Part shown: piece after piece, positions 37,815 through 49,127 of the stretch | How the letters are laid out: every line of letters starts with the position of its first letter | How positions within the stretch are numbered: position 1 is the stretch's first letter | Assembly: GCF_023278565.1 (NCBI RefSeq) | Contig: NC_064678.1 | Coordinates: 6,076,001-6,140,000, forward strand | Direction: 5' to 3' | DNA: 64,000 bases | DNA from: Colletotrichum lupini | Lineage: Eukaryota > Ascomycota > Sordariomycetes > Glomerellales > Glomerellaceae | The notes under the pieces: generated by a model | The model's database searches: none | Seen by the model: only the letters and a program-made list of their open reading frames with translations | Told to the model about the DNA's origin: nothing | Program-made: the position numbers and the translations under genes

Positions 37815-40665
37815 CTACCTTTTGAACTTCCCCTGGTCAAGACGTAAGCGACGCTTGATGCGAATCCACAAGTTCGCCCGCGCAGGCTGAGGCTCTGAGG
37901 TCTCACAGACTTCTTCGACATCTCGTTGTCGAATTTGGGTACACGGCGCGTTGGCGAGGGGTACGAGGCGACCAGGTGAATCCGTCTCTAAATCTCCCAA
38001 TGGTTGCCAAAGTGGTGAATGGTCAATGTTTGCGTTATGGCGAATTTGTATGAGCTGAACGCCATCCAGACCAGAGAAGATGGCCTGTAGTATCTGACTC
38101 CTCTCGCGACCTGCCCACTGCAACACACTGATGCCGCGCGAATTCTCCCGTCGAATGTCCGCTCCGCCTCGTAGTAATGATCTCATGATATCTTCTGTTA
38201 TGTCCTCTTCCCCATCCTCATGAGGAAAGTGAGCACGCCGTGACGGACGGGTGACGGCCCAGTGCAGTGGTGTCATCAGTCCAAGCGATGCTATCCCTAG
38301 AAGCTCATTGGATCCCAATTCGAGAAGACAGTTGAATCCATCAATGTTTGTAGCAAAAAATGCTGCAAGGTGTAGTGGTGTCAGGCCAGAAACAGATCGC
38401 GACCGAGGATTGGCACCGTTGGAAACAAGGCATTCGATTACTTGTCGCCGGCAGTATAATCCAGATCTGCATGCCCAATGTAGTGGTGTAAAGCCGTAAT
38501 TGTCCTCTTCTTCAGTATCCAGTCCATTCCGGATGAGATACTGACACATGGCCACAATAACATTGGTTGGCTCCTGAGGTGACAGGTCCTTGCTAAACGT
38601 CTGACCGTGATTGTATGCAAAAACAGCGTGAAGCGCACTCATTCCAAAGTGGTCGTGGTCCTTGAAGATCGATCGATCTCTGGTAAGCTCGTTGAGGCTG
38701 TCACGGTCCCCTGTTGAAAAAGCGGCGAACAAGGCTTCTAAGAACTCCGGGATCATCGTACGTCTTAACCTTAGGACTTTCTCAACCAACCCTGGACTCC
38801 CTGCCCATGTTGAGTCGGCCATCACACCTTTAAAGTCTTCTCCTTCAAGTGAGGAAATATCGAATGATTTACACAATATGTCAAAGCAGCCCTCGTGGCC
38901 ACCCTGAATGGCCAACCTGACTGCGTTGTTGATCCTCTCTGTCGGCCTCCGAATCCTTGGTGCCGGAGTTTTCTGGGACAACTCGATAAATACCTGAAGT
39001 ATGGCGTCAAGACCCAATGCGCTCAGGACCTCCAAGGGTGCTAGGTTTCGATTCAAACACTGACGGTGCTGAGAGGGACCAAGGTTATAGATCATTCTGT
39101 CTTGTAAATATACGTTCGTACTGTCATCCTTCCACATTTTGACAATTCCATGTACGCCTGAAAGAATTTCTTCGTCAATCTTGTGGCGTGGTGTTTGGGG
39201 CGGTATAGCCTCAAGACGATGCTGTCGCCAGTACCGAACGGAGTAGAGGAGGAAAGTATGTTCTCCGAGATAAATCCGAATGCTAGGAAGAGACCTGTTC
39301 TCTCGCTGTTGAGCCCTGAGCCATTCATCCTTGTGAATGATGACCTTCATACACAAAACAGCAAGATCTCGGTGGGCTTGCCTGTGGCTTTTGAGACAGA
39401 AATTTTCTCGCTCCTCGGCAGCTTGCAGGAGAAAGTCCCGAATCGATTTGTGGAAGACATCAATCGTGTTGTTTGCACCAATCTCCAGAAGGGGAGAATA
39501 CCTGCCGACCCTGATGGCAATGCTCTTTTTGTCGTCGTCTGACATTGGTGTCTTGCACTCAGCGGGGAAAGGCAGGTCTTTATCTAGCCCATCCTCTAAC
39601 ACCCGGCATGCGAAGGCTAGTTCCGACTTGGATAGTGCCTGGAATCCGTGTATGACACAATTCATTAGTGGAGAAGATCCGGCGAGTAACTCTGGTGGAA
39701 GCCGTGCTACAAGTTTCTCTGTGACAACATGCATATCGTCCGGGAGATTTCGGAGGAAGTTCTGCAGTGATTCTGGTGCTGCGGTCTCGAGCTGTCTGAA
39801 GTAGAGTGCAATGGGCAGAAACCTTTTGGGCTGGTATGATTTCAGCTGCTCATCTATGATGCTCAGATGCCGCTGTGTGTAACCTTGAAGCCTCCTGATT
39901 CTCTCTTTTTCGCGTTTCGTGAATTTATCGATATCTATGCCGATCTCGTTCTCGTGATCTGAGGCGGCAATGGTTTGGAGGGTTTTAGGCGACCGGGCGT
40001 CCCATTCAGACTGCAATGCCATTATGTGCTGAAAGGGGATGCTTGTCATGAAAACCTTCAGAAGCGGTTTTCCAGGCTCGCTACTACTCAAATAAAGGCG
40101 AAAAAGGTCTTTCAGCTTCTTCTGGTCATCATGGTCTATCAAGTCATAAGCATCAATGACGAAGAATACAACTTGTACCCCGGACTTTTGTATCAACTTG
40201 CACAAAAGACGCCACAAGGGCTGCAAAGGTCTATCCCTGGGTTTGATGGCAGGGTTGAAGCATTCTTGATCGTCCAGATCAAATGCGAAACGTTGTAGAG
40301 TCGGTTCTTCCATGATCATCTGGTGAATTGCAATAGAGAGGACCATGCTTCCAGTGTGGTTCTCATGATGGTGACAGAAAGCATAGAGAGTCTTGCTCTT
40401 CTGCGTCGTTGGGTGGCTTGAACTGAGTGTCTCCACCAGATGGCTCGCCAGAGTAGACTTTCCAACGCCTGGAAACCCGGTGAACCACAGAGCACAATGC
40501 GTCTTGCTGTTCATCCACCATTCCATGCCAGGAGTGCGAAAGATCCAGCTACACGATTCAGGATGCTTTCTCTGGTTGATTTCTTCGTACGCCTCGTCGT
40601 AGCGATAGTGAACGAAGGATTTAATGAATGATGGTAGAGACGAGTCTTTTTTCTCCAGAACGTTG
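37815..40665 (-). pseudogene. 3' half of an NLR-type gene: NACHT NTPase plus ankyrin repeats, split by a retrotransposon
   Basis: The longest open frame (903 codons from ATG 40526) starts with GFPGVGKST, a NACHT P-loop, at its residues 18-26, and continues with a Walker-B-like VVFFVIDAYD. The C-terminal third carries at least four ankyrin-type repeats (G-x-T-P-L-H-W-A and G-L-T-P-L-H-L-A motifs, roughly 38150-38660). The frame stays open upstream of that ATG, with typical pre-NACHT sequence (a C-S-W-I-F segment), up to the transposon edge at 40670, but has no other ATG before an in-frame TAA in the LTR. The gene therefore lost its 5' part to the insertion. The stop is at 37815-37817. NACHT-ankyrin proteins are fungal NOD-like receptors that oligomerise on sensing non-self. 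A truncated NACHT-ankyrin protein could still be made if transcription starts in the LTR. Confidence 0.88.
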
Positions 40666-40670
40666 CTTGC

Positions 40671-40895
40671 TGTTGGATTACGAGGCAGAAAAGGGGCCCT
40701 ATTAGGTAGTTAGGTAGGGGTGGTAGGTAGGCAGTCTAGGCCCGTGCAGACGGACCCTTCCACCTACCTATACCTACTAAGGGACCGCGGGCTCTGCCCA
40801 CGATCTTCCCCTCCTATACACACGTAATAGACCTATACTAACCTATTAACCTAGTTACGACTAAAAGGTCTAACTTACTTACGTATATACTAATA
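40671..40895 (+). repeat. 5' LTR (225 bp)
   Basis: Matches 47355-47579 over its whole length with mainly C/T and G/A differences. It contains CTACC/GGTAGG-rich sequence and an ACCGCGGGCTCTGCCCACG core. The outer (left) 150 bp are less mutated than the inner part. Confidence 0.95.
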
Positions 40896-47354: not shown

Positions 47355-47579
47355 TATTAGATTACGAGGTAGAAAAGGGGCCCTATTAGGTAGTTAGGTA
47401 GGGGTAGTAGGTAGGCAGTCTAGGCCCATATAGACGGACCCTTCTACCTACCTATACCTACTAAGGGACCGCGGGCTCTGCCCACGATCTTCCCCTCCTA
47501 CACACACGCAATAGACCTATACTGACCTATTGACCTAGTTGCGACCAAAAGGTCTGACCTGCTTACGTGTATACCAACA
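47355..47579 (+). repeat. 3' LTR (225 bp)
   Basis: Second copy of the LTR. Its inner start reads TATTAG where the outer copy has TGTTGG, a RIP-type change. Its outer (right) end, including CCAACA, keeps C and G positions that are T and A in the left copy. Confidence 0.95.
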
Positions 47580-49127
47580 CTTGCAAACGCCCCTCTGCGA
47601 GCAGCCTCTGCCGCGACCACGTAAAGCACCTGCTGAACACGTGGATTATCTGGGAACAACGTGTATGCAAGCACGTTGTTTTCGCCTTGATGTACTATCA
47701 ATGGGCCTTTAAGAACGAAGAAGTCAGTTGGACTGATGGTTTCTTGGGTTGAATTACACTTAAATTGAAACAATCGGCGTAAGATATTATCTTCCTCTAC
47801 ATGGTTCTTATCCGCCTTGGTCCCTTGGAGGTATCCTCCATCTTCTGGTGTTCTATTCTCCTTACGCACCTTGATGTGTTCCGGACAGCTCAGCGGCAGA
47901 TGTGGGGAAAGAGGGCAAAGTGTCCGGAGGAGCAGGCAGGATATCCCTTAGATGATTGCAAGCGGCATTCGAAAGCTTTTTCAAACCATGTATCGCTTGT
48001 TTATAGTTGTCCTTATCGACCGGCATTGAAGTATCAAAGCGGCATATGTCGCTGTGGCCGGCGTTGATTCTGACAATTGTTTCAACGTCACCCGGCATAT
48101 TCAAGGTCGCCGAGTCTCGTGAAACAATCTAAAGCGAATTAATGCCAAGCTCAGTTAAATTTGTGGAGTATATAAGGGCATACGGTTCCAGTTCCTTCAT
48201 AGAAGGAATAGATGCGGTAGTTGTTCAGCTGGTGTTTCCAGTTCTCCTGCAGCATGTCCGAATAGAGTGATCCTGATGTAACTGCCTCCATCAGATCATT
48301 CTGGTGCGAATTTGTGATGAAGTTGATGACTCTGGCGCACTTCGCTCCGTATGACACAAGTGTCTCGTTCCCTCCTCCATGAGGATTAGCGAAAAAGGCA
48401 AGCCCGCGCCTTGTTCTGTGTCAGTGTTATGAACTTGAAGTCAACAAGCAGCTTACGGTAACTTACGTGTAATCTTTGATGGGGTTGTATTGTGGATTAT
48501 TGTGGGCATTCACAAGAGCCTAGCGTGCCATGAGTAGGTCAATAACGAAAGATCAGGGCACTTGTAGGTTCGCTAATTACCTGTCGGACCAATATGCCAC
48601 CTAGGCTATGAGCAACGAATATGAGAGGCCGCTGCGCACACTAATTGCCCATATTATTCTGAGCATAAGTGAACACAAACATTATTTTTGGACGTGACAA
48701 ACCTGATCTCGCTCTACCTCAATACAGTTCAGAAGTTCCGTAGCTTCGTGAGTCAGGCGTTGCTTTGTGCTGGCCAGAACAGGGACAGAGTCGTATTCGT
48801 ATAGGAGTACTCTCGCGTTTGGCATATCTTTAGGGAGGTCGTCTCGGAGCCAGAGTCGACCATTTTTGGTCCACGTGCGAATGGAATGGGCAGCCCCTCT
48901 GAAGGGATTGAGGCCATGGACTGCGACGATGCTGAGATCGAGTAAGAAACAAAATATCATTCCAAATACAAAACACGAGAACCAGTGACACTAACTCGAT
49001 TATAGGCTTCTCATCGCCACTGAGGCCAGTGCCTGGGGCTATTTCGGAAAAAGGCTATTGCGAAAGTTAGAAAAAGTCAAGCAGTGACATCAATAACAAT
49101 AATTTGGTCTACAGCGGTAATTACCAT
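47580..49127 (-). pseudogene. 5' half of the NLR-type gene: SesB-like alpha/beta-hydrolase domain
   Basis: Inferred exons, all in phase: 49125-49127, 48990-49054, 48703-48931, 48581-48631, 48467-48519, 48184-48415, 47870-48128 and 47796 down to the insertion at 47580. They encode an alpha/beta-hydrolase of the fungal NLR (SesB-like) type: V-A-V-H-G-L-N-P near the start, L-W-L-R-D-D-L-P, and AHSLGG with the nucleophile-elbow serine. In today's genome the frame runs about 27 codons into the LTR and stops at 47498, giving a potential 396-residue hydrolase-only protein. Joining 47580 to 40665 after dropping one copy of the duplication gives an open frame of about 1,319 codons. The first exon (ATG only) and the donor at 48989 (GTCACT) are the weakest predictions. 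Two introns begin GTAATT and one GTAAGT. Confidence 0.82.

What the first reader, a model, noticed from the sequence alone, without database searches (positions are those of the whole stretch)
37815..49127. NLR-type gene split by a Copia retrotransposon, with the frame fully restorable in silico
Seen: exons for a SesB-like alpha/beta-hydrolase lie at 47580-49127 and exons for NACHT-ankyrin at 37815-40665, same strand. Between them is an LTR element with TGTTGG/CCAACA ends and the duplication CTTGC on both sides. After dropping the element and one duplication, exon lengths sum to a multiple of three (3,960 nt) and the reading frame crosses the junction without a stop. Known: hydrolase-NACHT-ankyrin proteins are fungal non-self/NLR receptors. 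Inference: this receptor was active until the insertion, so the locus may be a presence/absence-type incompatibility polymorphism.
Basis: partly seen in the sequence, partly recalled or inferred. Interest (0 to 1): 0.9.

Follow-up and report, generated by a model that had tools for sequence, protein, structure and literature searches.

The report
Fungal NLR gene split by retrotransposon
In a plant-pathogenic fungus, a gene that looks like a self/non-self immune receptor has been cut in two by a jumping element that was later mutated beyond use, while relatives still carry the sequence without the element; this is a clean, apparently recent example of a known way in which fungi lose such receptors.

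Summary
A hydrolase-NACHT-ankyrin (NLR-type) gene on the minus strand is split by a 6,909-bp LTR element (40671-47579) with a 5-bp target duplication. Annotated relatives settle it: Colletotrichum fioriniae has one 1,271-aa protein matching both halves, which meet at the insertion point with no residue lost or gained; a C. costaricense protein reads straight through that point and differs from this genome at 3 of 378 residues. Corrections: the coding sum is 3,867 nt, not 3,960; 'Copia' is not shown. New: the element was hit by repeat-induced point mutation (RIP) after it inserted (20 of 20 LTR differences are RIP-type), while both gene halves are free of RIP and stops; a second, probably older RIPed LTR element ends 260 bp upstream of the start codon. 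The genome is almost certainly C. lupini, which has no recorded sexual state, so the RIPed insertion may mark a past sexual cycle. The C. costaricense and C. filicis gene models are short too, so this receptor may be decaying repeatedly. 'Active until the insertion' is plausible but unproven; 'presence/absence incompatibility polymorphism' is untested. A good new example of a known kind.

The parts
47580..49127 (-). 5' part of the receptor gene: exons 49127-49125 (ATG), 49054-48996, 48931-48703, 48640-48581 (AHSLGG nucleophile elbow), 48519-48467, 48409-48184, 48128-47870 and the first 127 nt of exon 8 (47706-47580); alpha/beta-hydrolase (sesB/DUF676-like) domain plus linker
   Evidence: exons, homologue alignment; DUF676; fold of a relative
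47580..47584 (.). target-site duplication, copy 1 (CTTGC on +)
40671..47579 (.). 6,909-bp RIPed LTR element; superfamily not determined
47355..47579 (.). 225-bp LTR next to the hydrolase part; its own RIP changes lie at positions 135-224 (inner side)
40671..40895 (.). 225-bp LTR next to the NACHT part; its own RIP changes lie at positions 2-79 (inner side)
40666..40670 (.). target-site duplication, copy 2 (CTTGC on +)
37815..40665 (-). 3' part of the receptor gene (rest of exon 8): NPHP3_N/NACHT domain with GKST P-loop, ankyrin repeats, stop TAG
49388..56804 (.). second RIPed LTR element (LTRs about 200 bp, duplication GATTT at 49383-49387 and 56805-56809), ending 260 bp upstream of the receptor's ATG
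49128..49382 (-). remaining upstream region between the ATG and the second element; not RIPed

Best explanation
This is a single fungal NLR-type gene (sesB-like alpha/beta-hydrolase, NACHT/NPHP3_N, ankyrin repeats; eight exons, 1,288 codons) that an LTR retrotransposon split by ordinary integration with a 5-bp duplication, inside the eighth exon, between the linker and the NACHT domain. The insertion is most simply the derived state: two relatives carry the uninterrupted sequence. Shown: anatomy, junctions, continuity with both homologues, RIP of the element after insertion, no RIP or stops in the two gene parts, no close paralogue found in the genome. Inferred: the receptor is no longer made as one protein; the 5' part could at most give a hydrolase that ends at the start of intron 7 or 27 codons (one shared) into the LTR, and the 3' part could at most start at an internal ATG 21 residues before the P-loop; with RIPed blocks on both sides of the 1.8-kb hydrolase island, silencing is likely. 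The species (almost certainly Colletotrichum lupini) has thus lost this receptor, probably after its split from C. costaricense and before its last RIP-competent (sexual) cycle.
For: LTRs, duplication and ends. Homologue-supported exons and meeting of the halves. C. fioriniae P0001 covers the NACHT-ankyrin half completely at 87%; C. costaricense P0107 reads ...GAFAS|NVLE... across the site with 3 differences in 378 residues. 20 of 20 LTR differences are C/T or G/A transitions, 18 of 20 at CpA; among 7 ungapped LTR copies, own included, of 10 fetched, 21 of 21 variable columns are of this type. Interior TA/AT 1.73 and (CA+TG)/(AC+GT) 0.08, gene parts 0.76/1.26 and 0.52/1.33. Of 17 other genome matches to the NACHT half the best-scoring is 23% identical (48 of 56 candidates scored); nine other matches to the hydrolase half are 26-45% identical. 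Domains. Hydrolase fold: AlphaFold model of the 62%-identical relative P0101, 760 PDB matches at E <= 0.001, lipases on top.
Against: No reads, RNA or other isolates could be examined, so expression and fixation are unknown. The models of the nearest relatives are themselves short: C. costaricense 378 aa, C. filicis 242 aa, so the gene may have been decaying before the insertion. The second, deeper-RIPed element near the promoter and the Thr-to-Asn change at a nearly invariant site also allow an earlier loss of function. The empty site in C. costaricense could be ancestral polymorphism. DUF676 scores below its cut-off in this genome's own copy (19.4 against 20.3), and sequence search of the PDB gave only weak hydrolase matches (best E 0.025).
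Confidence: 0.87

Rival explanations
1. The receptor was already dying in this group: the upstream element (or another lesion) silenced it first, constraint was lost, and the coding insertion was a late, neutral event.
For: C. costaricense and C. filicis models are short; P0107 ends exactly before a codon that is CAA in this genome. Asn at a site that is Thr in 198 of 202 relatives with the motif.
Against: Both parts are free of stops over 1,288 codons and differ little from relatives; the short models may be annotation faults; RIP depth also depends on family and copy number.
Confidence: 0.35
2. A live presence/absence incompatibility polymorphism: some strains of the species keep the uninterrupted allele and the difference matters in vegetative compatibility.
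For: Vegetative compatibility groups are described for lineages I and II (PMC10189766, passage); most transposon insertions are present in half of the strains (16 C. lupini genomes; PMC11645255 section 2.3); fungal NLRs vary strongly within species (PMC4986451, passages).
Against: No within-species data here. RIP in place puts the insertion before the last sexual cycle, which favours fixation in the clonal lineages. This gene is not shown to act in incompatibility.
Confidence: 0.15
3. Two separate neighbouring genes (a free hydrolase and a NACHT-ankyrin gene) between which an element happened to land.
For: Free-standing relatives of the hydrolase exist and are the closest outside the genus (P0101 62%, 299 aa; P0102 61%, 344 aa; P0103 63% over 68%, 238 aa, partial); the C. 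filicis model ends in intron 7.
Against: C. fioriniae P0001 and C. costaricense P0107 each hold both sides of the site in one protein; exon 8 continues in frame and without gap across it; hydrolase-NACHT-ankyrin proteins also occur elsewhere (P0008).
Confidence: 0.04
4. Assembly artefact joining unrelated contigs through a repeat.
For: The element is repeated: with this one, at least 40 LTR and about 40 interior matches were scored.
Against: Identical 5-bp duplication and exact LTR ends at both junctions, and both flanks belong to one gene by homology.
Confidence: 0.02

Closest known systems
Fungal sesB-like / NACHT / ankyrin NLRs (PMC4986451 and PMC12258605; passages seen)
   Same: Same three-part architecture; sesB-like domains are related to alpha/beta-hydrolase lipases and are among the most frequent NLR N-termini; a death-and-birth evolution is proposed for such genes.
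   Different: Here the gene is broken by an element. The unbroken relative is C. fioriniae CFIO01_03549.
Podospora het-v locus (PMC9262711; passages seen)
   Same: One allele has genes replaced by a cluster of transposable elements; in Neurospora het-Vb seems pseudogenised, with taxa having their own stop codons.
   Different: There the locus is a tested incompatibility locus; here no function or polymorphism is shown, and a single element splits one NLR-type gene.
Podospora het-B2 haplotype with LTR insertions (PMC10890737; passages seen)
   Same: LTR retrotransposon insertions at an allorecognition locus.
   Different: There they lie between genes; here the coding frame is interrupted.
RIP in Colletotrichum without a known sexual stage (C. 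higginsianum, and C. cereale as cited there; PMC5576322; passages seen)
   Same: RIP-type mutations and RID and Dim-2 orthologues in species with no reported sex; an ancestral or cryptic sexual state was suggested.
   Different: There RIP was seen in some DNA transposon and Helitron families, while in the AT-rich LTR families RIP target sites were no longer detectable; here an LTR insertion with clear CpA bias sits at a site that is empty in a close relative, which ties RIP to a place on the tree.

Membership tests
Fungal NLR (sesB-like/NACHT/ANK) | N-terminal alpha/beta-hydrolase domain | tested here: met
   DUF676 19.4 bits for this genome's part (below the cut-off 20.3), 20.9 for C. filicis P0100; AHSLGG present; AlphaFold model of relative P0101 matches lipases, TM about 0.4-0.5
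Fungal NLR (sesB-like/NACHT/ANK) | NACHT-type nucleotide-binding domain with P-loop | tested here: met
   NPHP3_N 85.2 bits (cut-off 24.8), NACHT 27.6 (26.7); GKST
Fungal NLR (sesB-like/NACHT/ANK) | C-terminal repeats | tested here: met
   Ank_2 75.1 bits, Ank 54.1
Fungal NLR (sesB-like/NACHT/ANK) | One continuous gene in this genome | tested here: not met
   6,909-bp element inside exon 8; it is a disrupted member
Fungal NLR (sesB-like/NACHT/ANK) | Role in non-self recognition | not testable with these tools
   no phenotype data
LTR retrotransposon | Direct LTRs and target-site duplication at exact ends | tested here: met
Copia superfamily | Reverse transcriptase of the RVT_2 type | tested here: inconclusive
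   none of 53 RVT_2 matches in the genome lies in the element; 0 Pfam families at E <= 1 in 15 stop-masked pieces covering part of each strand; the element is heavily mutated
RIP target | CpA-biased C-to-T/G-to-A changes confined to repeated DNA | tested here: met

The most novel reading that the evidence does not exclude
The insertion did not simply kill the receptor but un-fused it: retention of intron 7 gives a stop right after the hydrolase linker (as in the C. filicis model, and near where the 62%-identical free-standing relative P0101 ends), so a stand-alone sesB-like hydrolase, freed from NACHT-ankyrin control, may still be made while the sensor half is lost, and the same un-fusing may have happened more than once among these species.
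Probability: 0.1. Interest if true: 0.65.

Novelty: new member of a known kind. Interest (0 to 1): 0.42.

Why it matters
It is an unusually complete case of NLR loss: the same gene uninterrupted at the site in two relatives, an insertion point exact to the base, and an inserted element that carries its own record of RIP. Since RIP is held to act before meiosis, a RIPed insertion at a site that is empty in C. costaricense gives a marker that could help to time the loss of sex in a pathogen now regarded as clonal, and it could be scored in the strains already sequenced. Whether losing the receptor affects strain compatibility is open.

Tried and rejected
Copia assignment: RVT_2 and RVT_1 searches of the genome and 15 stop-masked pieces gave no domain in the element; for RVT_1 only 150 of 309 candidates were scored, and I compared hits by eye with about ten other copies only. 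The element is not the same family as the un-RIPed RVT_2 family: its one hit there is 53 bp at a locus edge. Paralogue as source of an intact copy: none found. Selection on the two parts: not done, no DNA of the relatives is held. A shared insertion in C. filicis could not be tested. My first count of variable LTR columns (last part) mixed orientations and is void; one search replaces it. An earlier count said 28 identical RVT_2 loci; the right number is 27 of 30. The exon ends were revised (exons 4 and 6). NCBIfam gave only far-below-cut-off matches. PDB sequence search with the hydrolase profile was weak.

Papers: outlines, named sections or passages only; none read whole. Ten searches showed no paper on this locus among the rows listed; most listings were cut (for example 8 of 68), and the library holds open-licence papers only.
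Full report
What is there. On the minus strand the window holds, from 49127 down, the exons of an alpha/beta-hydrolase domain, then from 40665 to 37815 a long open stretch with a NACHT/NPHP3_N domain and ankyrin repeats. Between them lies a 6,909-bp element with 225-bp LTRs (TGTTGG...CCAACA), flanked on both sides by GCAAG. Coding pieces, checked against homologues, are 49127-49125, 49054-48996, 48931-48703, 48640-48581, 48519-48467, 48409-48184, 48128-47870, 47706-47580 and 40665-37815; the last two are one exon by protein continuity. 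Their lengths add to 3,867 nt, 1,288 codons and a stop. The first exon is the ATG alone, and the exon at 48409 has an AAG acceptor, so these two are the least certain.

One gene, not two. A search with the NACHT-ankyrin half gave 7 proteins at E <= 0.001 (only the 7,994 candidates sharing most words were scored); one is close: P0001, C. fioriniae CFIO01_03549, 1,271 aa, 87% over the whole query. Aligned separately, the hydrolase half matches P0001 residues 1-318 (279 identities in 338 columns, 20 of them gaps) and the NACHT half residues 318-1271 (832 in 954, 3 gaps), meeting at one shared Ala (first seen). The 20-residue gap in P0001 is the exon with AHSLGG, which that annotation skips; C. 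filicis and the other relatives aligned over it have it. A search with the hydrolase half (137 proteins, 120 listed) added C. costaricense P0107, 378 aa, and C. filicis P0100, 242 aa. P0107 reads across the insertion point: 117 of 118 residues equal on the hydrolase side and 259 of 261 on the NACHT side, the Ala counted twice, so 3 differences in 378. P0100 equals this genome at 239 of 241 and then reads one residue into intron 7. A search with residues 1-330 of P0001 gave 93 proteins; after P0001 the best was 46% identical, a hydrolase-NACHT-ankyrin protein of a Xylariaceae. The closest proteins to the hydrolase half outside the genus are free-standing: 299 aa at 62%, 344 aa at 61%, and a partial one at 63% over 68%.

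Domains. NACHT half: NPHP3_N 85.2 bits, NACHT 27.6, Ank_2 75.1, all above cut-off. Hydrolase half: DUF676 at 19.4 bits, just under the cut-off of 20.3; the C. filicis orthologue scores 20.9. An AlphaFold model of relative P0101 (36 aligned sequences, pLDDT 86.2) matches alpha/beta-hydrolases in the PDB: 760 matches at E <= 0.001, lipases on top, TM about 0.4-0.5; by sequence alone the PDB matches are weak (best E 0.025). The serine elbow and the invariant late His (HSDICRF here) are kept in this genome. The residue before PH is Thr in 198 of the 202 proteins in which the motif was found (14 of 216 without it; the three Colletotrichum orthologues, all judged by eye to have or lack the region, were left out of this count: P0001 and P0100 have Thr, P0107 does not reach it), and Asn here.

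Which genome. The window is base 6,076,001-6,140,000 of contig 5 of a 63,443,975-base, 12-contig assembly. Contigs 1-10 (lengths) leave 559,780 bases for the last two, and contig 11 is at least 512 kb long (a match). This fits C. lupini: genome sizes 54.5-63.4 Mb, two long-read assemblies (PMC11645255 section 2.1), ten core chromosomes in the genus and one accessory in C. lupini (section 3), a 0.5-Mb minichromosome in the reference (PMC10189766, passage). The species name is an inference; the strain is probably IMI 504893, whose transposon content is the highest (section 2.3). C. costaricense and C. filicis belong to the C. acutatum complex; how near each is to C. lupini within it I know only from recall and from the protein identities.

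RIP and timing. The two LTRs differ at 20 of 225 sites; all 20 are C/T or G/A, 18 in CpA context. In the LTR next to the NACHT part the mutated sites lie only at 2-79, in the other only at 135-224: in both, the side facing the interior. The interior is saturated (GC 0.274, (CA+TG)/(AC+GT) 0.08), the gene parts are not RIPed, and the change is sharp. Each LTR carries its own changes, so RIP followed insertion. No other kind of difference in 225 sites bounds ordinary LTR divergence at about 1.3% (rule of three, my arithmetic). The interior has at least 38 other copies, nearly all at 85-89% (41 match rows, own included, one copy in two rows; 40 of 104 candidates scored). RIP is described as premeiotic (PMC5576322, passage), no sexual state is recorded for C. 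lupini (PMC10189766, passage), though rare sex is not ruled out (PMC11645255 section 3). Cytosine-methyltransferase matches lie in open frames of 1,351 and 765 aa, with a third weak one (26.5 bits); that the first two are Dim-2 and RID is my guess from size. So the insertion precedes the last RIP-competent cycle of this lineage and, unless the site was polymorphic in the ancestor, follows the split from C. costaricense.

A second hit. A second LTR element, 49388-56804, with duplication GATTT, ends 260 bp upstream of the ATG. Its LTR differences are RIP-type too, 20 of 20 in 199 sites, but mostly at CT and CG (which took in one site more), and CpA/TpG is gone in its first 100 bp. This suggests more RIP rounds and an older insertion. 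The hydrolase part is thus a 1.8-kb island between two RIPed blocks.

How it likely works. The most likely outcome is loss of the receptor. As the DNA stands, a transcript of the 5' part would run 27 codons (one shared) into the LTR and stop at 47500, or stop at the start of intron 7; the 3' part has its first in-frame ATG at 40526, 21 residues before GKST. Neither would be a normal NLR. Expression is unknown.

Against the literature. sesB-like with NACHT and ankyrin is a common fungal NLR type (PMC12258605, passages; PMC4986451, passages). Replacement of allorecognition genes by transposons and independent pseudogenisation are known (PMC9262711, passages). C. lupini insertions vary between strains (PMC11645255 section 2.3). 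So the kind is known; the exactness of the case and the RIP time mark are what it adds. Against my reading: the nearest relatives' models are short too, and I saw none of their DNA.

Noticed in passing
G000, L050-L079: An un-RIPed RVT_2 (Copia-type) family: 27 of 30 fetched matches are identical over 753 bp, reference included; L050 has 1 and L078 4 differences, L079 another length and 2 stops; 20 of the 30 lie in a 1,438-aa open frame. Most other RVT_2 matches in the list carry 2 to 16 stops, a few none. Old elements were RIPed, this recent burst was not.
   Followed up: partly
40671-40895, 47355-47579 and LTR loci L020-L026: RIP fades towards the outer edge of the LTR: RIP-product cells from inner to outer 45-bp bins are 26/42, 16/42, 10/28, 4/21, 2/14 in 7 of 10 copies (3 with indels left out). 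The gene flank is spared.
   Followed up: partly
48640-48581: A 60-nt in-frame exon with the nucleophile elbow is skipped in the C. fioriniae annotation (P0001); probably an annotation fault, alternatively an optional exon.
   Followed up: no
end of P0107; window codon after RIRRL: The C. costaricense model ends exactly before a codon that is CAA here, as expected if it is a stop there; that gene may be broken independently.
   Followed up: no
58062-59678 (-): Alpha-L-arabinofuranosidase B gene (543.5 bits) in a GC-rich stretch just past the second element.
   Followed up: no
about 1400-8900: Some 7.5 kb of RIPed DNA (GC about 0.2) in which no LTR pair was found.
   Followed up: no
24641-25327 (+), 10319-11479 (+), 35470-36333 (-), 61709-62938 (-): Other genes: DUF3455 protein, FAD-binding oxygenase-like, thioesterase-like, MBOAT-like.
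   Followed up: no
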